DNA of 64,000 nt, taken from Rhodocyclales bacterium (GTDB taxonomy: Bacteria; Pseudomonadota; Gammaproteobacteria; Burkholderiales; Rhodocyclaceae). Under the pieces are notes generated by a model. The model did no database searches and was not told where the DNA came from. It saw only the letters and a program-made list of their open reading frames with translations. Location of the stretch: positions 1 to 64,000 of the forward strand of contig JAPLQY010000068.1 in NCBI GenBank assembly GCA_026399475.1, read 5' to 3'. The position numbers and the translations under genes are program-made. Positions 719-9,818 of the stretch are shown here, piece by piece; position 1 is the first letter of the stretch; each line of letters opens with the position of its first letter.

Positions 719-2502
719 GTAGAAAAACCCCATTTCGGGCCGCAAAAGTCTCTCCGAATGGCGCGATTTTCCACGCGCCATTTGTCATCTCATCGTCGAA
801 GTAATCGAGTCGCCGTGCCGCCAGCACCGACTCCTGCCTCAAGCCACCCGCATACCCTGTTGGGCGGTCCTTCCCCGCTCTTCCTTCCTACTGCGCATAG
901 CCGTGATGCGCCAGCTTCTCGATGTTGTGCACCAGGCAGAAGAGCTTCCACTGCGTGTCGACCTTCTGCTGCCCGCGTAGCGTGAAGCGATCCAGCCCCT
1001 TGTTGTAGCGGATGTTGGCAAACACCGGTTCCACCGTGGCAAAGCGTCCGCCATACAGCGCCCGCCCGCGTTCCGAATCGATGGCCCGCTTCATGCGGTC
1101 GCTGTAGTTCAGCGTGGTGCCGGATGCCTTGCCATAGAAGAAGCTGACCTGCCGGGTCTGGGTGGTCTCCGGTTTCCTCAGGCACTTGTCGCGTTGCGTG
1201 CAGGGCAGGCAGTCGCGCAGCGCGCCCTGGAACTTCACCGCCAAGTGGCCGTTGTGGTTGCAGTTGGCCCCGTTCTGGTAAAGCATCTTGCCGGCTGGAC
1301 AGATGCAGGTACCGGCCGCTGCGTCGTAGTCGAAGTCCTTGGGCCGGTAGTGGCCGCCGCTCTTCTTCGGGTGCGCCTTGTCGTAGAGCGGATCGGGCTG
1401 GGCCTTGTACTTTGCCTGGTCCTTGAAGCGCTCATCTCGCTTGCGCATCTGGTTGTCGGCGATCAGCGCCGGCCGGTTTTGCTCTGCCATGGCTTTGAGG
1501 TTGGCGTCGGAGTGGTAGCCGGCGTCCGCCGTGATCAGGGTATCGGACGTGCAGTGCGGGCTGACCGCCTCGACCATCGGCATCAGCAATGCCTGTTCGC
1601 TGCCGGTGCCGTGGGCTTGGGCTTCGACGATGATCTGGTGGCGGGCGTCTACGGCGGCCACCCCGGTGTAGCCCTGGATGACGCCCTTGCTGGTGGCCAT
1701 CTTGGCCGATTCGTTATCGGTGCGGTTGCTCTTGATGACTTTGCCCTTCGCGCCCTTGCGCTCGTCCGGATTGGCGCTGAGCCACTGCCGCATTTGGGCG
1801 GCTTCCTGCGTCAGACGCTCCACCTGCCGGGTTTCCTTGGCGGCCAGGTCCGGTTCGACCGGCAGAGCGTCGTTGGCCCGATGGCGGGCGAGCATGGCCT
1901 GCGCGGCGGCTTCCATCTTGGCGGCCTGACGTTCGAAGTCGGCACGCGTGCCGCTCTTGGCCTTGCTGGCATTGCTGGGCAGCTTGACGCCGTCGATGGC
2001 GAACATCTCGCGACCGATGAGGCCCTGGCGGTCGCAGATCAGCAGGACTTCCTTGAACAGCGGAACGATCTCGTCGCCCAGGGTGCTGACGAAGGCGGCG
2101 AAGGTGGTGAAGTGCGGGGCGCTGTCGCCAGAGAGCGCAATGAAGGTGACGTGCTCGGTGCAGGCACGCGCGATGTCGCGCGAACTGACGATGCCCCGCG
2201 AATAGGCGAACAGCACGACCTTGAGCAGCATGGCCGGCGGGTAGGCGCTGGCGCCGGTGAGGTCGTTCTTGTAGCGGGTGTCGAATCGGGAGAGATCGAT
2301 CTGGTGATCGATCAGGTAGTTCAGGGCGTGTTCGAAGGTGCCCGGATGCAATTGCCGTTCGAGATCGACGGCAATGAAGCGCGGGCTGGTGTCGATGGGT
2401 TTGTAGCGGGCCATGAAGTCTCCTTCGCATGAACTTATGCTTGGAGTCTTGTTATTCCATTTGGTTCACGGCAGGATGCGTCTATGAATGAACTTTTTCT
2501 AC
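719..2502 (-). mobile_element. IS1182-family insertion sequence
   Basis: The element is about 1.78 kb and carries one transposase gene on the minus strand. Its ends are short inverted repeats: GTAGAAAAA at the left edge and TTTTTCTAC at the right. I see no direct target duplication. The left flank is the core of one attC site and the right flank is six bases short of another, so an adjacent cassette seems to have been lost. The orientation opposes the cassette genes. Confidence 0.8.
888..2414 (-). CDS. IS1182-family DDE transposase
   Basis: A 508-residue transposase. The N-terminal DUF772-type domain contains the family-typical stretch around YPPAMLLKVVLFAYSRGI. The DDE catalytic core begins with MFAIDGVKLPSNAS (first Asp) and continues through ITADAGYHSD (second Asp). 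A cysteine-rich C-terminal segment (CICPAGK, CLPCTQRDKCLR) is typical of the IS1182 group. The length is normal for the family and the frame is intact, so the element may be active. The catalytic residue assignment is by family resemblance. Confidence 0.92.
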   Translation of the reverse strand: MARYKPIDTSPRFIAVDLERQLHPGTFEHALNYLIDHQIDLSRFDTRYKNDLTGASAYPPAMLLKVVLFAYSRGIVSSRDIARACTEHVTFIALSGDSAPHFTTFAAFVSTLGDEIVPLFKEVLLICDRQGLIGREMFAIDGVKLPSNASKAKSGTRADFERQAAKMEAAAQAMLARHRANDALPVEPDLAAKETRQVERLTQEAAQMRQWLSANPDERKGAKGKVIKSNRTDNESAKMATSKGVIQGYTGVAAVDARHQIIVEAQAHGTGSEQALLMPMVEAVSPHCTSDTLITADAGYHSDANLKAMAEQNRPALIADNQMRKRDERFKDQAKYKAQPDPLYDKAHPKKSGGHYRPKDFDYDAAAGTCICPAGKMLYQNGANCNHNGHLAVKFQGALRDCLPCTQRDKCLRKPETTQTRQVSFFYGKASGTTLNYSDRMKRAIDSERGRALYGGRFATVEPVFANIRYNKGLDRFTLRGQQKVDTQWKLFCLVHNIEKLAHHGYAQ

Positions 2503-3160: not shown

Positions 3161-3439
3161 GTGATCCTAAGTTTCAAACACAAGGGCTTGGCCCGCTTCT
3201 TCGCGCACGGTTCCAAGTCGGGCATCCAGGCTCAGCACGCGGAGCGGCTGCGGCTCATACTCGGTCGGCTCCATGTCGCAACGGCCGCCCGAGATATGGA
3301 CTTGGCCGGTTTGCGCCTCCACGCACTCAAGGGCGAGCGCAAAGGCGTGTGGTCGGTGTGGGTGAGCGGCAACTGGCGGGTCACGTTTCAGTTCGTGGGA
3401 AGGGATGCCGAACTGGTGGACTACGAGGACTATCACTGA
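3161..3439 (+). CDS. higB: HigB/RelE-type mRNA interferase toxin
   Basis: A 92-residue plasmid-maintenance-killer (RelE superfamily) toxin. It opens with SFKHKGLARFF, the usual HigB N-terminus, and contains LRLHALKGERKGVWSVWVSG and the late WRVTFQF strand of the fold. Family members cleave mRNA on the ribosome. The start is a GTG; an ATG seven bases upstream is in another frame. It is followed 11 bases later by its antitoxin gene, the toxin-first order of hig modules. The pair fills one integron cassette, a location where toxin-antitoxin systems are common and may stabilise the array. Confidence 0.88.
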   Translation: MILSFKHKGLARFFAHGSKSGIQAQHAERLRLILGRLHVATAARDMDLAGLRLHALKGERKGVWSVWVSGNWRVTFQFVGRDAELVDYEDYH

Positions 3440-3450
3440 GGTAATTTGCT

Positions 3451-3735
3451 ATGCGTATGCACAACCCCCCTCATCCGGGTGAAATCATCAAGTCTCTGTG
3501 CTTGGAGCCTGTAGGTCTTACGGTTACCGAGGCTGCGGAAGGTTTGGGCGTAAGCCGTAAAACCCTTTCTGCAATCCTCAATGGGCGCTCGGGCATCAGT
3601 CCCGAAATGGCGATACGCCTATCCATTGCCTTTAACACCAGCGCCGAGAGTTGGCTGAGCCAGCAAGTGCAATACGACTTGTGGCACGCGGAGCAAGGGC
3701 GTAAAGCGCTCAAGGTCATCAAACTTGCCGCGTAA
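3451..3735 (+). CDS. higA: HigA-type XRE antitoxin
   Basis: A 94-residue helix-turn-helix protein of the HigA family. It starts with [16 protein letters not shown], the family signature, followed by the DNA-binding helices ([24 protein letters not shown] at residues about 22-46) and a C-terminal dimerisation and toxin-binding region. It neutralises the upstream toxin and would repress the pair. The gene ends just before the attC site that closes the cassette. Confidence 0.9.
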
Positions 3736-4032: not shown

Positions 4033-4073
4033 AGTTGGCGCGAAAGCGCATGAAGGAGGTTTCAAATGGCTGA
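3969..4073 (+). pseudogene. C-terminal remnant of a RelE/HigB-like (Gp49-type) toxin
   Basis: One frame reads KRVVVLHAFIKKSQ and then TPDRELKLARKR, the conserved C-terminal half of phage-derived Gp49-like toxins of the RelE superfamily. An in-frame stop (TGA) lies immediately upstream of this stretch and the N-terminal two thirds are absent, so no working toxin can be made. The remnant overlaps the start of the intact antitoxin gene by 8 bases, the arrangement of a once functional pair. Confidence 0.75.
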
Positions 4074-4383
4074 ACTGAAATTTAAGCCCGTCCGCCATTC
4101 GCACAAAGAATTTCTTGCCAAGGCGGCAACCCGCAAGGGGTTCGTCGAAGCCTATGACGCCCTCGCCCTTGAGTACCAAGTTGCCGGCCAAATGCTCAAA
4201 GCGCGGTCTCGTGCCGGCCTGACGCAAGACGTCGTTGCGGAACGGATGGGAACAACCAAGAGTGCGGTTTCGAGGCTCGAATCTGCTGGAAAGCATGCCC
4301 CGTCGCTCGCAACGCTCAAACGGTACGCGCAAGCTGTTGGTTGTGAGCTTCAAGTGAAGCTAGTGCCGCAGAAGGCTGCATGA
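4066..4383 (+). CDS. XRE-family antitoxin, orphaned
   Basis: A 105-residue helix-turn-helix protein. Residues about 40-65 (MLKARSRAGLTQDVVAERMG, then TTKSAVSRLES) form the Cro/C1-type DNA-binding motif, and the C-terminus ends LVPQKAA. It matches the antitoxins that accompany Gp49-like toxins and overlaps a toxin remnant upstream. The SD sequence is GGAGG, nine bases before the ATG. The frame is intact, so the cassette encodes an antitoxin without a partner, possibly protective against related toxins or simply a relic. Confidence 0.82.
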   Translation: MAELKFKPVRHSHKEFLAKAATRKGFVEAYDALALEYQVAGQMLKARSRAGLTQDVVAERMGTTKSAVSRLESAGKHAPSLATLKRYAQAVGCELQVKLVPQKAA

Positions 4384-4427: not shown

Positions 4428-4915
4428 GCGAACGCCTCGCATCTACCCAGGCAGTCGCCTGCATTCCTCTCGCGCAAGCCAGGAACACTTTCACGCCGCC
4501 TGATCTGTACAAGGGTGTTGTCGGGTGCGTTGCCCGGGACAATTGCGATCTTGCTGCCGGCTTGTTCGCGCTGGCGGGCATTTACGGCAGCTTCGATGCC
4601 GCGCGGGTCAGCGACAGGTCGGCTGGACAGGCGAAAGCGGTCCTGGTGATGAACACATTCGCGACCATGTCGCCGGACAGGAAAACCCGGTTCAGTGAGG
4701 CGCTGAACGGCGTGGCGAAGAACCCGAAAGCCCTCGGCAGGCTTTGTGCTGAAGTGCGGAAAATCGGCATGCCAAATTACTATCCGGGCTACATGATTCT
4801 GCATGGCATCAAGGCGTTCACGGGCAAGCTCCATGACGGGGCGCTGCTCGAGGAATTCGATTCGCAAAAAGTCTGGATGAATCTTCAGGCCACATACCTC
4901 CATTGCCCGGCGTGA
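4421..4915 (+). pseudogene. Hypothetical protein gene lacking its 5' end
   Basis: A coding frame without a plausible start begins right after the truncated attC and runs to a TGA stop. The sequence reads well throughout (for example FTPPDLYKGVVGCVARDNCD, LFALAGIYGSFDAARVSD, NYYPGYMILHGIKAFTGK), so coding extends at least 130 bases upstream of the first possible start, a TTG at 4562. The N-terminus, perhaps a signal peptide, was probably removed when the array edge formed. Use of the internal TTG would give a 117-residue product. The family is not recognised. Confidence 0.5.
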
Positions 4916-4976
4916 ATTGCCGCACCCGGCTTCCATGGAGCATAATTTTTTCAACGCCACGCAGGAGGCATGAAAA

Positions 4977-7847
4977 ATGGAAAGCGCGAAAATCAGGATG
5001 CTGCTGTTGATGCGGGGCAACGCCGGCAAGGAGGTCGCCGCGCTGAAGGCTGCCTTGCGCAAGGCCATGGGCGAGGGCGCCGCCACTTATCCAGGCCTGG
5101 CCGCCGGCAATGAATTCGAGGCCGACACCGAGACGGCCCTGCGCGCCTGGCAGTCCGGCGTGGGTCTGGTGGCGGATGGCATCGCCGGGCCGCGCAGCCT
5201 GTCCGCGCTGGGCATTGCGCCGACCGCGGAACTGGCCGTCAGCGTGGATGGCGCCCTGGTGGGCAAGCTGTTTCCCTACACCCGGACATCGAACATCGCC
5301 AGGAATCTGCCTTACGTGACGGCGGCACTGGCGGCTTTCGGCCTGGGCGATGCCGGCATGATCGGCGTCGCGCTGGGCACGATACGCGCCGAGACCGAGG
5401 GTTTCGTGCCGATCGCCGAGTTGCCATCCCATTTCAATACCTTGCCCGGCCAGGCCGCTTTCAGCGCCTACGAATACAAGCTGGGCAACACGAATCCCGG
5501 CGATGGCGGAAGGTATCGCGGACGCGGCTACGTGCAATTGACCGGGCGCGCCAACTACGAAAAGTTCGGCAAGGTGCTGGACATTCCGCTGCTGGACAAC
5601 CCGGACAGCGCCTGCGCGCCGGAGGTGGCCGCCTGCCTGCTGGCGGCCTTTCTCGATGCGAACCGAGACAGTTTGGGCCGGGCACTGGCCAGGGATGACC
5701 TGAAGGCGGCGCGCAAGGTCGTCAACGGCGGCAGCCATGGCCTGGAGCGTTTTGCCGATACTTTCCGCATGGCGCAAAAGGCGTGGGTCGCCGCGAAACC
5801 GCTGCCGGCAGCGCGGGGCAGGGCAGCCGTCCCCATCGCGGCGCGTCGTGCCAGCCTCGATGTGAAGCGCGATGCCGCGGACCTGCGCGATCGGCCCTAC
5901 CTGCCGCCGCCGCGCTCGCTGCCGCCGATGTTCCCGGCCGATGGCGACATCCGGGATTTCGTGGGCGCCTATACCCGGGCCGGGCTCATTCTGGATCAGG
6001 GACAGGAGGGGGCCTGCACCGGTTTCGGCCTGGCCTGCGTGATCAACTATCTGCGCTGGCGATCTGCCGGGATGCCGAAGACGCTCGAGTCGGTGAGCCC
6101 GCGCATGCTGTACAAATTCGCCCGGCGTTTCGACGAATACGAGGGCGAGAGCTACGACGGCTCGAGCTGCCGCGGTGCGCTCAAGGGCTGGTATCACAAT
6201 GGCGTATGCCTTGAATCGCGGTGGCCTTACGCGGCGGGGGACAATGCGCTGCCGATATCCGGATGGGATGGCGACGCGATCGAACGGACGCTGGGGGTGT
6301 ATTACCGCATCGACCCGCAGGCCATCACCGACCTGCAGGCAGCGATTCTGGAAGTCGGCGCGATCTACGTTTCGGCCTGTACCCACAAGGGCTGGGATGC
6401 GGTGAAAACCAGCGCCCGGGCGCCGACATCGCATGCCACCCTGCCGCTGATCGACTACGACGGCAAGCCGTCGCGCAGCGGCGGCCACGCCTTTGCGCTG
6501 GTGGGCTTCAACCGGGCCGGTTTTGTCATCCAGAATTCCTGGGGGCACACGTGGGGAGCCGGCGGCTTCGCCGTGATCAGCTATGCAGACTGGCTGGCCC
6601 ATGCGATGGATGCCTGGGTTGCGGCGATGGGCGTGCCGGGTGTGGTCTCGGGTCGCCTCGCCGCGGGCGGCAGGGAACAGGCGGGCGCTGCAAGTGCTGC
6701 CGGCCATGCCAACTGGTGGGACGAGGCAACGGCCTACCGGCACAGCATCGTGCTGGGCAACAACGGTCGCGTCGAGCGCTTCGACACGCCGGACGGCGTC
6801 ACGCGCAGCTTGCAGCACCAGGCGTGCGTCATGCCGGACGCCTGGTTCCGGCAGAGCCCGCAGGAGAGGAAGCGCCTGGTGATCTACGCCCACGGCGGCC
6901 TCAACAGTGAAGCGGATGCGATCCGGCGCGCCCAGGCCATGGGCCGCTATTTCCTCGGCAACGGCTGTTACCCGCTGTTCCTGGTGTGGAAGAGCGGCCT
7001 GCTCGAAGCGCTGGGGAACATTCTTGCGGACAAGGCCAACGCGGGCGCCGCAGGCATTGCCGGGGGCTTCGGCGGCTGGGTGACGGACACGATCAGCGAT
7101 CCGGTCATCGAAAAGACCATCGGGCGCCCATTCGCCCGTCCGCTGTGGAGCGAAATGAAGGAAAACGCCGAGCTCGCGGCGCAAAGCGGGCGCGGCGGCG
7201 ATCTGCTGACGGAGGCGCTGCGTTCGCTGGCCGGCAGTTGGGGCGACCGATTCGAGCTGCACCTGATCGGCCATTCCGCCGGATCCATTGCACTCGGCAG
7301 AATGCTGGACATCCTGGCGCAGAAAGACCTGGCCGGCAGCGTCAAATCCGTCCATTTGTACGCCCCGGCCTGCACAGTGGCTTTTGCCAACCGGCACTAT
7401 GCACCGCATGCCGAAATCATGAACAGGCTGCACCTGGACATCCTGGCGGATCGGCGCGAGCAGGACGACAACGTGGCGTATGTCTACCAGAAGTCGTTGC
7501 TCTACCTGGTTTCCAACGCGCTGGAAGCCGATTTGCGCACGCCGGTCCTCGGTCTGGCGAACGTTTGCAATCCGCAGTATTCCGGCTGGGATGGCTCGCC
7601 AGACAGTGCCGAAACCCTGGCCAACTGGCGCAATGCGATGGAAACAAGCCGGCTGGAAGATCGCCTGTCGATCCACGACGAGGAGAAAATCCTCACCCGG
7701 CGCGGGAACGGCGCCGATCAGGAAGAGAAGACCGAAAGCGCATCCCACGGCGGCTTCGACAACAATGTCGAAGTCATCGGCAGGACGCTGGAGCGGATTA
7801 CGGGGGCGGCACTCGATCTGCCGGTTGACGACCTGGTCGGCTTCTAG
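4977..7847 (+). CDS. Multi-domain protein: peptidoglycan-binding, GH19-type muralytic, papain-like protease and alpha/beta-hydrolase modules
   Basis: A 956-residue protein with four enzyme or binding modules and no signal peptide. Residues about 10-80 resemble a peptidoglycan-binding repeat (FEADTETALRAWQSGVGL, VADGIAG). Residues 100-270 resemble a GH19 chitinase/muramidase, with Glu139 and Glu141 in RAETEGF and the signature YRGRGYVQLTGRANYEKFG near residue 180. Residues 325-555 are a C1-type cysteine protease: Cys347 in QGQEGACTGFG, His504 in SGGHAFALVGF, Asn520 in IQNSWG. Residues 640-870 look like an alpha/beta hydrolase, with IYAHGGLNSE and Ser767 in IGHSAGS. The start follows AGGAGG by eight bases. 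It is transcribed alone. A cell-wall-targeting effector or phage-derived lysin is possible, but the role is not known. Confidence 0.8.
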   Translation: MESAKIRMLLLMRGNAGKEVAALKAALRKAMGEGAATYPGLAAGNEFEADTETALRAWQSGVGLVADGIAGPRSLSALGIAPTAELAVSVDGALVGKLFPYTRTSNIARNLPYVTAALAAFGLGDAGMIGVALGTIRAETEGFVPIAELPSHFNTLPGQAAFSAYEYKLGNTNPGDGGRYRGRGYVQLTGRANYEKFGKVLDIPLLDNPDSACAPEVAACLLAAFLDANRDSLGRALARDDLKAARKVVNGGSHGLERFADTFRMAQKAWVAAKPLPAARGRAAVPIAARRASLDVKRDAADLRDRPYLPPPRSLPPMFPADGDIRDFVGAYTRAGLILDQGQEGACTGFGLACVINYLRWRSAGMPKTLESVSPRMLYKFARRFDEYEGESYDGSSCRGALKGWYHNGVCLESRWPYAAGDNALPISGWDGDAIERTLGVYYRIDPQAITDLQAAILEVGAIYVSACTHKGWDAVKTSARAPTSHATLPLIDYDGKPSRSGGHAFALVGFNRAGFVIQNSWGHTWGAGGFAVISYADWLAHAMDAWVAAMGVPGVVSGRLAAGGREQAGAASAAGHANWWDEATAYRHSIVLGNNGRVERFDTPDGVTRSLQHQACVMPDAWFRQSPQERKRLVIYAHGGLNSEADAIRRAQAMGRYFLGNGCYPLFLVWKSGLLEALGNILADKANAGAAGIAGGFGGWVTDTISDPVIEKTIGRPFARPLWSEMKENAELAAQSGRGGDLLTEALRSLAGSWGDRFELHLIGHSAGSIALGRMLDILAQKDLAGSVKSVHLYAPACTVAFANRHYAPHAEIMNRLHLDILADRREQDDNVAYVYQKSLLYLVSNALEADLRTPVLGLANVCNPQYSGWDGSPDSAETLANWRNAMETSRLEDRLSIHDEEKILTRRGNGADQEEKTESASHGGFDNNVEVIGRTLERITGAALDLPVDDLVGF

Positions 7848-7879: not shown

Positions 7880-9250
7880 TCAACGCCAGATTCGATCGGC
7901 TGGCCGGGTCGCCGGCGCTGCAATTTCAGGCTGGCTGTGCGAGGCGTGAGCCTCGGCCAGCGGCAGTTCCACCCAGAAGGTGCTGCCCAAACCTTCGATG
8001 GACTCATAGCCGATGCGTCCGTGCATTCTTTCAGTCAGTCGTTTCGCTATCGCCAGTCCGAGCCCGGCCCCCTGGACCGATCCGGATTCCGCGCCCAGCC
8101 GGGCAAACGGCTCGAACAACTGGTCCCGCCGGTCGCTCGCAATGCCGACGCCGGAATCCGCGACGCGGATGCGCAGGTAGGCGGTACCGGCCGCCTGGCA
8201 CGAGACCGTGACCGTGCCGCCATCGCGATTGAATTTCACGGCATTGGACAGCAGGTTCAACAGCACCTGCTTTATCAGGGCGTGGTCGGCCCATACGACC
8301 CACGCGGCAGCGGATGCGCAGTCGTCGATCAGCGCAATGCCTTTTTTGCTTGCGTTCAGTTCGACTATCGAGAGGCAGGGCGCGATGATTGCGTCGGTGC
8401 GAACAGGTTCCATCCTGACTTTCAGTTCGTCTGTCTCGAGGCGGCTCATGTCGAGCACCTGTGTCACCAGTCCCAGCAGATGTTTCGCTTCGCCGGAAAT
8501 GTGGCCGATGTTGCCCAGTTGTTCCTCGGTCAGCGGATTCGCCTGGTCGGAACGGAGCAGTTCGGCGAGTTCCAGGATGGCGGTCAGCGGGGTGCGAAAC
8601 TCATGGCTCATCGAAGTCAGGAAAACCGATTTCGCGCGGCTCGATTGTTCGGCGGCATGCTGCGCGGAACGCAAACGGGCCTTGACGATCGCGCGATCGC
8701 GCACGACGACGACTCCCGCCAGCACCACCAGCCCGGCCGAGCCCAGCATGGAAGTCAGCATCAGCGCGGGCGTGGCCGAAGCGGGAATGAAACTGGCAGG
8801 CAGCCAGCCCAATGCCGTTGCCAGATACAGGAACACCAACGCGGTCGTCAGGAGGGCCCCGGTCGCCAGCAGGATGGCGGTGTTGCCGAAGGTGCTCAGC
8901 AGGGCGAGGTTCGCAAGAAATACCGGCAGCGCAACCGAACTGAAGCCGCCTGTCAGGAAGGACCATACGGCGACGATCAGGATGCCGCCGATGTTGGTCG
9001 TCACCAGGCCCAGGCTGATGTCGCCTGTTGCCCGAATCAGCAAGGCTCCGAACACGGGCGTCGCTATTCCCGCGGCGAACAGGGCGTACTCGATCGACGG
9101 CAGGTCCCCTCGAACGAAGAGGTCGCCAAGGAGCATCAGCGATGCGACCAGCGAAATGGCCAGCAGGGATTTTGCGATGCCTTTGTGCAGCGTGCATCGG
9201 CGCGGGTCGTTCAGGACACTCGGCGGCACAAACCAGGTGATGACATCCAT
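7880..9250 (-). CDS. Membrane-bound sensor histidine kinase
   Basis: A 456-residue kinase. The N-terminal 180 residues form about six closely packed membrane helices with almost no periplasmic loop, so it probably senses a membrane or intracellular signal. A HisKA dimerisation domain follows (SMSHEFRTPLTAILE, phospho-acceptor His216), then a HATPase domain with N box (NLLSNAVKFN), G1 (DSGVGI) and G2 (GAGLGLAI). There is no receiver domain and no response regulator beside it, so its partner is elsewhere. The ATG was chosen because it has a GAGAG ribosome-binding site and directly precedes the first helix; longer frames add low-complexity residues. Confidence 0.88.
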   Translation of the reverse strand: MDVITWFVPPSVLNDPRRCTLHKGIAKSLLAISLVASLMLLGDLFVRGDLPSIEYALFAAGIATPVFGALLIRATGDISLGLVTTNIGGILIVAVWSFLTGGFSSVALPVFLANLALLSTFGNTAILLATGALLTTALVFLYLATALGWLPASFIPASATPALMLTSMLGSAGLVVLAGVVVVRDRAIVKARLRSAQHAAEQSSRAKSVFLTSMSHEFRTPLTAILELAELLRSDQANPLTEEQLGNIGHISGEAKHLLGLVTQVLDMSRLETDELKVRMEPVRTDAIIAPCLSIVELNASKKGIALIDDCASAAAWVVWADHALIKQVLLNLLSNAVKFNRDGGTVTVSCQAAGTAYLRIRVADSGVGIASDRRDQLFEPFARLGAESGSVQGAGLGLAIAKRLTERMHGRIGYESIEGLGSTFWVELPLAEAHASHSQPEIAAPATRPADRIWR

Positions 9251-9419
9251 GGCAAGCGCACTCTCTCGGCCGCTGCTGGACCGTTGTCGGGGGATCGGAA
9301 TGACGATTGTACAAGTGGCGGGACAAAGTCGGGAAATGGTAAGGTACATGGACTCTGCCGGCCAATGCCGCGTTCCGGCGAGCCGGTTGTACCCGGTGTC
9401 CCCCTGAAAGGAGCCGCAA

Positions 9420-9818
9420 GTGATTGAAGGAAGCTGCCTGTGCGGAGGCATCCGCTACCGGTATGACGGCGAAATCGATGAGATTTCGATCTGCCACTGC
9501 TCGCAGTGCCGCAAGGCACAGGGCTCGGCTTTTGCCGTCGTGAGCCCGATCGCGTCCGCAAAGTTCACGCTCCTCTCGGGTGCCGAACTGCTCAAGGAGT
9601 TCCGCGCCACGCCAGGCAAGGCCAGGGTCTTTTGCGCCAACTGCGGCAGCCCGATCTACAGCGCCAAGGACGATTTGCCGGAGATAAAGCGCCTGCGCCT
9701 CGGTACGCTGGATACGCCCATTGTGTGCCGCAATGTCTATCATATTTTCGTCGGCTCGAAGGCGTCATGGCTGGACTGCGACGACGCGTATCCGCGCTTT
9801 GCGGAACGCAGGCCGTAG
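9420..9818 (+). CDS. GFA-family (glutathione-dependent formaldehyde-activating-like) zinc protein
   Basis: A 132-residue protein of the GFA/CENP-V fold. It shows the zinc-binding cysteines of the family: CLCGGIRY near the start, CHCSQCRKAQGSAFA at about residue 24, and FCANCGSPIYS at about residue 76. Family members bind Zn and in a few cases act on S-hydroxymethylglutathione; most are of unknown substrate. The start is GTG, preceded by GAAAGGAGCCGCAA. It is divergent from the upstream kinase and probably independently transcribed. Confidence 0.85.
   Translation: MIEGSCLCGGIRYRYDGEIDEISICHCSQCRKAQGSAFAVVSPIASAKFTLLSGAELLKEFRATPGKARVFCANCGSPIYSAKDDLPEIKRLRLGTLDTPIVCRNVYHIFVGSKASWLDCDDAYPRFAERRP

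What the first reader, a model, noticed from the sequence alone, without database searches (positions are those of the whole stretch)
4977..7847. Single polypeptide combining wall binding, GH19-like hydrolase, papain-like protease and lipase-like modules
Three apparently complete catalytic centres (Glu139/Glu141 region; Cys347-His504-Asn520; Ser767) and a peptidoglycan-binding module occur in one 956-residue protein lacking a signal peptide. I know of no characterised protein with this combination. It could be an effector delivered into other cells, a phage-like lysin, or a self-processing system in which the protease separates the modules.
Basis: partly seen in the sequence, partly recalled or inferred. 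Interest (0 to 1): 0.8.

Follow-up and report, generated by a model that had tools for sequence, protein, structure and literature searches.

The report
Three-enzyme cell-wall, protein, lipase-like hydrolase
One bacterial protein joins a cell-wall cutter, a papain-type protease and a lipase-like enzyme, and relatives have assembled similar trios from different parts, which suggests a purpose-built protein for taking bacterial cells apart.

Summary
Window 4977-7847 (+) encodes one 956-residue protein: PG_binding_1, a phage-endolysin-type GH19 domain, a papain-family (C1) protease and an alpha/beta hydrolase (ABH). No signal peptide or membrane helix is apparent. 77 of the 80 loci kept from a genome scan carry it as one full-length frame in the same order (52-84% identity).

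The constant part is C1-ABH, which also exists alone (~600-740 aa). Peptidoglycan hydrolases were fused to it in three separate clades: PGB-GH19, another GH19, and an N-acetylmuramidase. The same ABH family also occurs as amidase-ABH-caspase and beside caspase genes. Wall hydrolase + cysteine protease + esterase-like enzyme is therefore a recurrent trio with exchangeable parts. A caspase version (lipase, amidase, protease) was remarked on in 2012; I found no description of the papain version.

I found no sign that it is phage-borne. The type VI secretion marker VipB is missing from its own genome and from 13 of 15 genomes of its clade that I tested, but present in 24 of 34 genomes with more distant copies. 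Best guess: an envelope-demolition (self-lysis or conflict) effector. Activity, substrate and localisation are untested.

The parts
4963..4968 (+). AGGAGG ribosome-binding site, 8 bases before the ATG
   Evidence: sequence printed; role inferred
4977..7847 (+). whole gene, 956 aa, PGB-GH19-C1-ABH
   Evidence: full-length homologues
5025..5210 (+). PG_binding_1 domain, residues 17-78
   Evidence: 1.1e-5, above curated cut-off
5271..5822 (+). GH19 endolysin-type domain, residues 99-282; invariant E139 (5391-5393) and E148 (5418-5420)
5796..5870 (+). variable, low-confidence linker, residues 274-298
   Evidence: residues 276-298: 32% mean identity to the window; pLDDT under 50 at 274-288
5871..5966 (+). 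conserved DxxDxRDxxYxPP segment, residues 299-330, where the alignment with the solved bacterial protease 3ois begins; possible occluding or cleavage segment
   Evidence: role inferred; 301-312 poorly modelled
5979..6632 (+). papain-family C1 protease, residues 335-552; Q341, C347 (6015-6017), H504 (6486-6488), N520 (6534-6536)
6732..7844 (+). alpha/beta hydrolase domain with its leading strands, residues 586-956; S767 (7275-7277), acid E828 or D831 (7467-7469), H924 (7746-7748)
   Evidence: profile match to caspase-linked ABH domains

Best explanation
It is a three-enzyme envelope-demolition protein made in the cytoplasm. Its fixed part is a papain-type protease joined to an alpha/beta hydrolase (C1-ABH). 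Peptidoglycan-cutting modules have been added to that core independently in different lineages, here PG-binding plus a GH19 lysozyme-like domain. Proposed mechanism (inferred): the protein accumulates inactive in the cytoplasm, perhaps held by the conserved segment in front of the protease; on a death or conflict signal the hydrolase attacks membrane lipids or other esters, which lets the GH19 domain reach peptidoglycan, while the protease degrades cell proteins or releases the modules. The outcome would be lysis of the producing cell (programmed or altruistic lysis), or of neighbours after release. Shown: architecture, conservation of all three active sites, repeated assembly in separate clades, family link of the ABH to caspase-paired ABH domains. 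Inferred: activity, substrate, trigger, site of action.
For: All three active sites are invariant in 78 of 78 sequences. C1-ABH is the conserved unit at 32-43% identity outside the PGB-GH19 clade, with the protease Gln, Cys, His, Asn and the ABH Ser, Glu/Asp and His invariant in 22 of 22 rows. Wall hydrolases are fused to it in three separately placed clades: PGB-GH19 (100/100), muramidase PF11860 in L099 (2.5e-61), another GH19 in L130 (1.5e-9). The same ABH family lies between Amidase_2 and a caspase in L138 and L139 (probability 100, 1.7e-53) and matches a profile of three ABH proteins, two of them (L107, L140) beside a caspase gene (3.8e-40). A GDSL lipase-caspase-M15 peptidase gene lies 57 bases downstream of one C1-ABH gene (L142). 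Of 26 genes in operon-like position beside 34 stand-alone C1-ABH genes, 5 are wall-hydrolase-type, against at least 2 of 103 at distance 4-5 (p=0.0037, post hoc). In L106 (Rhizobium gallicum) a trypsin-NucA-type endonuclease protein lies four genes away; that pair is the core of a conflict system which, in some versions, has lysozyme and papain-like effectors (PMC7159879 section 32). No signal peptide is evident and no immunity-like neighbour recurs. Kaur et al. 2020 report that caspase and alpha/beta-hydrolase genes pair in bacterial conflict systems (PMC7159879, passages and section 9 part 1); Asplund-Samuelsson et al. 2012 tie amidase-caspase fusions to autolysis (PMC3501461, passages).
Against: I measured no activity and found no paper that did for this family. 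The ABH substrate is unknown: no convincing solved relative by sequence, so 'lipase' is a guess. The window gene is solitary: no sensor, NTPase or adaptor like those of known conflict systems was recognised beside it (by eye), and PADLOC has no model for it. Taking all neighbours within two genes, wall hydrolases are not significantly enriched (5 of 129 against at least 2 of 103, p=0.33). Type VI secretion is commoner in genomes carrying the protein (26 of 49) than in the class sample (34 of 185), which would fit export. A wall hydrolase without a signal sequence could also serve outside the cell after an unknown export.
Confidence: 0.4

Rival explanations
1. An antibacterial effector injected into neighbours by type VI secretion or another machine; GH19, protease and hydrolase act in the victim.
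For: VipB in 26 of 49 homologue genomes against 34 of 185 in the class sample; 24 of these 26 are among the 34 genomes with the more distant copies (identity up to 60%). GH19 and other wall hydrolases are common in type VI effectors, some with two toxic domains (PMC12135965, passages; TseP, PMC11893102, abstract and outline); TseP 8xcl is a structural hit.
Against: The window's own genome, rated 100% complete with 9% contamination, has no VipB, and only 2 of 15 genomes with copies at 65% identity or more have it. No PAAR, VgrG or other delivery marker appeared in Pfam for the protein. No recurrent immunity-like neighbour, which periplasm-targeting effectors normally need (recalled).
Confidence: 0.22
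2. A secreted or lysis-released scavenging enzyme that digests dead cells or biofilm matrix: three hydrolases for three polymers, no killing role.
For: Solitary gene, no recurrent immunity-like neighbour, sporadic distribution; the PGB domain could anchor to wall debris.
Against: No secretion signal is apparent; coupling of the ABH to caspases points to regulated cell death rather than feeding.
Confidence: 0.2
3. A self-processing precursor: the papain-like domain cleaves the linker before or behind it and releases a free wall hydrolase.
For: Linkers 274-288 and 558-576 are poorly modelled; the first varies in length; a conserved DxRD segment precedes the protease; papain-like autoprocessing of toxins is described in PMC3482391 (passages).
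Against: No conserved cleavage motif was seen in the 276-298 linker (32% identity). The C1-ABH junction is kept in the aligned cores, though separate ABH genes exist. Not exclusive of the other readings.
Confidence: 0.15
4. A phage endolysin or prophage remnant.
For: GH19 and PGB modules resemble phage endolysins.
Against: No relative among viral contigs (which reaches close relatives only); in 50,697 phage records 17 weak hits to C1-ABH, all to the protease domain (the GH19 part was not searched there); no phage gene was recognised by eye in the called genes of the window; relatives lie on contigs of up to 4 Mb or on large plasmids.
Confidence: 0.03

Closest known systems
Amidase-caspase and GDSL lipase-amidase-caspase proteins (Asplund-Samuelsson et al. 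2012, PMC3501461; passages read)
   Same: One polypeptide with wall hydrolase, cysteine protease and esterase/lipase; I found two amidase-ABH-caspase proteins whose ABH is of the same family
   Different: Here the protease is papain-type and the wall hydrolase GH19; the paper counted four amidase-caspase sequences, one of them also with a GDSL lipase
Caspase plus alpha/beta-hydrolase pairs in MoxR-vWA ternary conflict systems (Kaur et al. 2020, PMC7159879; passages, section 9 part 1 and section 32 read)
   Same: Cysteine protease coupled to an alpha/beta hydrolase; related ABH next to caspase in L107 and L140
   Different: No MoxR or vWA gene recognised beside the window gene; not compared with the paper's own sequences
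Papain family C1A, bacterial short type (3ois, recalled to be xylellain of Xylella)
   Same: Gln/Cys/His/Asn and N-terminal segment
   Different: Embedded between a wall hydrolase and an ABH
GH19 phage-type endolysins (4ok7, 9ms7, 9eoi)
   Same: Fold and E139 position
   Different: Not found in phages as part of this protein; part of a multi-enzyme protein
TseP, type VI effector with amidase and lysozyme domains (PMC11893102; abstract and outline read)
   Same: Multi-enzyme wall-attacking protein
   Different: No protease or ABH reported; has a VgrG partner and an immunity protein

Membership tests
Papain family C1 | Gln-Cys-His-Asn in order on a papain fold | tested here: met
   Pfam 9.6e-6 over cut-off; residues 78 of 78; Foldseek papain-type hits; distances not measured
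GH19 endolysin | GH19 fold with catalytic Glu | tested here: met
   phrog_181 1.6e-28; Foldseek 9ms7 target TM 0.85; E139 and E148 invariant; Pfam GH19 below cut-off; activity not tested
Alpha/beta hydrolase superfamily | Nucleophile elbow GxSxG with acid and His after the expected strands | tested here: met
   strand 759-766, S767, helix 769-782; E828/D831 after strand 818-823; H924 after strand 918-921; no Pfam model over cut-off; no fold search of this domain alone obtained
Lipase | Hydrolysis of lipid esters | not testable with these tools
   only insignificant hits to esterases and lipases
Phage endolysin | Encoded by a phage or prophage | tested here: not met
   with the limits stated in the rival
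Type VI secretion effector | Genome encodes type VI secretion | tested here: not met
   own genome 0 VipB; 26 of 49 other carriers have it
Type VI secretion effector | Delivery domain and adjacent immunity gene | tested here: not met
   no delivery domain in Pfam; no recurrent immunity-like neighbour
MoxR-vWA ternary conflict system | MoxR and vWA genes beside it | tested here: not met
   none recognised by eye among the genes called around the window gene. Among the 34 stand-alone C1-ABH loci MoxR-type genes lie two to four genes away in L131, L137, L153 and L154; whether these are ternary systems was not settled
Caspase-ABH pair | ABH of the caspase-paired family | tested here: met
Caspase-ABH pair | Caspase partner | tested here: not met
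   partner is papain C1
Known anti-phage system | PADLOC model | tested here: not met
   no model for the window protein at E 0.01

The most novel reading that the evidence does not exclude
There is an undescribed class of three-enzyme lysis proteins in which evolution has repeatedly combined one conserved alpha/beta hydrolase with a cysteine protease (papain or caspase) and whatever peptidoglycan hydrolase was at hand (GH19, muramidase, amidase). In this class the papain-type protease takes the place of the bacterial caspase, so that this protein is the executioner of an apoptosis-like, self-contained lysis programme.
Probability: 0.3. Interest if true: 0.8.

Novelty: new variant of a known kind. 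Interest (0 to 1): 0.62.

Why it matters
If the trio really acts together, it shows that bacteria have built dedicated envelope-demolition proteins several times, with a papain-type protease where others use a caspase. It would make a testable link between bacterial caspase-like cell death and cell-wall lysis: which ester does the shared hydrolase cut, and does the protease switch the protein on? The proteins are also candidates for new bacteriolytic enzymes.

Tried and rejected
Phage lysin: rejected on what was searched. Type VI as a general explanation: weakened, not excluded for the second clade. Conserved operon partner or immunity gene for the full-length protein: none seen; the neighbour clusters printed (the 40 largest) were common superfamilies such as regulators and ABC ATPases, or sets confined to close relatives. 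The 117-aa ORF just upstream (4562-4915) has no relative in the loci held. The long antisense frame 4818-7748 (976 codons) was not pursued: the + strand protein has 77 collinear homologues.

Wall-hydrolase neighbours of the 34 stand-alone C1-ABH loci: all within two genes, 5 of 129 against at least 2 of 103 at distance 4-5, p=0.33; operon-like genes only, 5 of 26, p=0.0037. A first version of this test had 1 of 103 far hits (p=0.0012); a recheck found a lytic transglycosylase in L157 and the weaker figure stands. With one set of session queries at every distance, immediate neighbours give 7 of 67 against 2 of 240 at distance three or more (p=0.0004); leaving out L158, found only by itself, and the fragment in L159, and adding the L157 gene, 5 of 67 against 3 of 240 (p=0.014). 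These tests were chosen after seeing the data, L106's DUF2272/SH3 protein is counted as a wall hydrolase by inference, and some loci are near-copies (L149/L150/L152, L153/L154, L131/L133). The Pfam tallies print only the 25 commonest families, so both counts are lower bounds; near genes were looked at more closely than far ones. Genes over 3000 or under 210 bases were left out of the two tallies, not of the 26.

ABH relatives in the PDB by sequence: none convincing. A fold of the ABH alone and a viral fold search could not be obtained.
Full report
What is there. Window 4977-7847 (+) encodes 956 residues with a good ribosome-binding site. Domain searches give PG_binding_1 (17-78), a GH19 endolysin-type domain (99-282), a papain-family protease (about 335-552) and a C-terminal alpha/beta hydrolase with GHSAGS at 765-770. 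The AlphaFold2 model (57 sequences, mean pLDDT 79.9, pTM 0.67) has mostly well-folded domains separated by weak linkers at 274-288 and 558-576. Foldseek finds papain-type proteases and GH19 endolysins in the PDB. In the model C347 starts helix 347-363, H504 lies in strand 503-511, N520 follows strand 515-519, S767 sits between strand 759-766 and helix 769-782, E828 and D831 follow strand 818-823, and H924 follows strand 918-921: the expected order for papain-like and alpha/beta hydrolase active sites.

Is it one protein elsewhere? A scan of one genome per species found 141 relatives, of which the best 80 were kept. 77 of the 80 have a single full-length frame (starting by residue 100 and reaching 940 or beyond); L054 and L057 are split in two and L075 starts at a contig end. 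Identity is 52-84%. In the window and these 77, E139, E148, Q341, C347, H504, N520, S767, E828, D831, H924 and D928 never vary; E141 varies in 2. The protease is the most conserved part (73% mean identity to the window), the 276-298 linker the least (32%). By record title it occurs in beta- and gammaproteobacteria and in Desulfobulbales-type bacteria (L016, L021, L031, L057); the 73% copy in Buttiauxella and the 68-74% copies in Desulfopila suggest horizontal transfer (inference). It is sporadic: of 61 genomes (own and relatives), 12 had any match and 2 the full-length protein; 15 of 274 class genomes matched the protein and 17 of 398 phylum genomes the core, own included. The window's genome has one copy.

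The core and its add-ons. Distant relatives are shorter, about 600-740 residues, and hold only C1-ABH. In an alignment of 22 cores both active sites are invariant. On a tree of 38 cores, chosen for spread from those held, the PGB-GH19 fusion forms one clade (100/100). The muramidase fusion L099 (PF11860, 2.5e-61) and the GH19 fusion L130 (1.5e-9) lie in two other clades (100/100 and 100/99) whose other members are unfused. The tree is unrooted; three independent fusions is the simplest reading, not a proof. L130 keeps the GH19 residues and both fusions keep the protease and ABH residues. PGB-GH19 also exists as a free gene (for example L109, beside an amidase gene).

The link to caspases. Two proteins, L138 (955 aa) and L139 (913 aa), read Amidase_2 - ABH - caspase with His and Cys motifs of caspases present (motifs recalled). 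Their ABH matches ours at probability 100, E 1.7e-53. A profile of three further ABH proteins (L107, L140, L141), of which L107 and L140 lie next to caspase genes, matches at 3.8e-40. In L142 a GDSL lipase-caspase-M15 protein lies 57 bases downstream of a C1-ABH gene. FGE-sulfatase genes lie near C1-ABH in four loci (L131, L132, L153, L154). In L106 a trypsin-NucA-type endonuclease protein lies four genes away, the pair that Kaur et al. describe as a conflict-system core with lysozyme and papain-like effectors in some versions (PMC7159879 section 32). The same paper reports caspase and alpha/beta-hydrolase genes as constant neighbours in its VMAP ternary systems (passages and section 9 part 1). 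Asplund-Samuelsson et al. (PMC3501461; passages) list four amidase-caspase proteins, one with a GDSL lipase as well, called a 'highly destructive weapon', and FGE-sulfatase among caspase-linked domains. So a papain-type protease here occupies the place that a caspase has in related assemblies. Whether our ABH is the very family of the 2020 paper was not tested.

Neighbourhood. No gene was seen to recur beside the full-length protein except through synteny among close relatives or as a common superfamily. For 34 stand-alone C1-ABH loci, 129 proteins within two genes and 103 at distance four or five were scanned with Pfam. Wall-hydrolase-type genes: 5 of 129 near (L105, L106, L108, L144, L158) and at least 2 of 103 far (L144 amidase, L157 lytic transglycosylase), p=0.33. 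Among the 26 genes on the same strand within 200 bases there are 5 (L106, L108, L142, L144, L158), p=0.0037 against the far set. With one set of queries at all distances the immediate neighbours stand out at p=0.0004 to 0.014 depending on which doubtful cases are kept. These tests were chosen after the fact and some loci are near-copies, so this is supporting evidence only; the fusions carry the argument.

Delivery. The window's genome (rated 100% complete, 9% contamination) has no type VI sheath gene VipB. Of 50 loci given from the 80, 49 genomes could be searched and 26 had VipB; among the 15 with copies of 65% identity or more 2 had it, among the other 34, 24 (with identities; completeness of these genomes is not told). 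A class sample has 34 of 185. Type VI delivery therefore does not explain the window's clade but remains possible for the second clade; the excess there may also reflect taxonomy and genome size.

How it may work. The most likely role is envelope demolition from within or after release: the hydrolase acts on membrane or other esters, GH19 on peptidoglycan, the protease on proteins or on the protein's own linkers. Architecture and conservation are shown; activity, order of events and trigger are inferred. No paper on this combination was recognised in seven searches of the open-access library; of the papers they listed I opened PMC3482391, PMC7159879 and PMC3501461 in passages or sections and saw the others only as listings. 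Subscription papers are not covered.

Noticed in passing
window 3161-3735 (+): A RelE/HigB-like ORF (by eye) followed by an HTH gene (HTH_3 3.7e-12) looks like a type II toxin-antitoxin pair; a second HTH gene lies at 4066-4383.
   Followed up: no
window 888-2414 (-): DDE transposase (PF13751 2e-22) close upstream; histidine kinase at 7880-9451 (-) converges on the gene.
   Followed up: no
L054 7992-10803; L057 8013-10865: Two natural copies are split into two reading frames, near residue 632 and near residue 345.
   Followed up: partly
L108 5066-9728; L109 5705-8696: Parallel gene sets: a membrane protein (not matched between the two) and a homologous amidase-PGB gene are followed by C1-ABH in Rhizobium etli and by PGB-GH19 in Caballeronia; these two last genes are the two halves of the window protein.
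   Followed up: partly
L108 5066-6211; L110 15056-15997: Membrane proteins sharing a short FLAGFxERLV region lie upstream of C1-ABH in two distant loci (4e-7 in a pairwise comparison); no Pfam match.
   Followed up: partly
L137 5816-7717; L106 11593-12930; L108 10654-12279: Animal-haem-peroxidase-type genes near C1-ABH in three loci.
   Followed up: no
L131, L132, L153, L154: FGE-sulfatase genes near C1-ABH, a domain also reported for bacterial caspases.
   Followed up: no
L106 49-3147 and 14608-16656: A 1032-aa protein with trypsin and NucA-type endonuclease domains four genes from C1-ABH, and by eye a second C1-ABH-like gene on the same stretch.
   Followed up: partly
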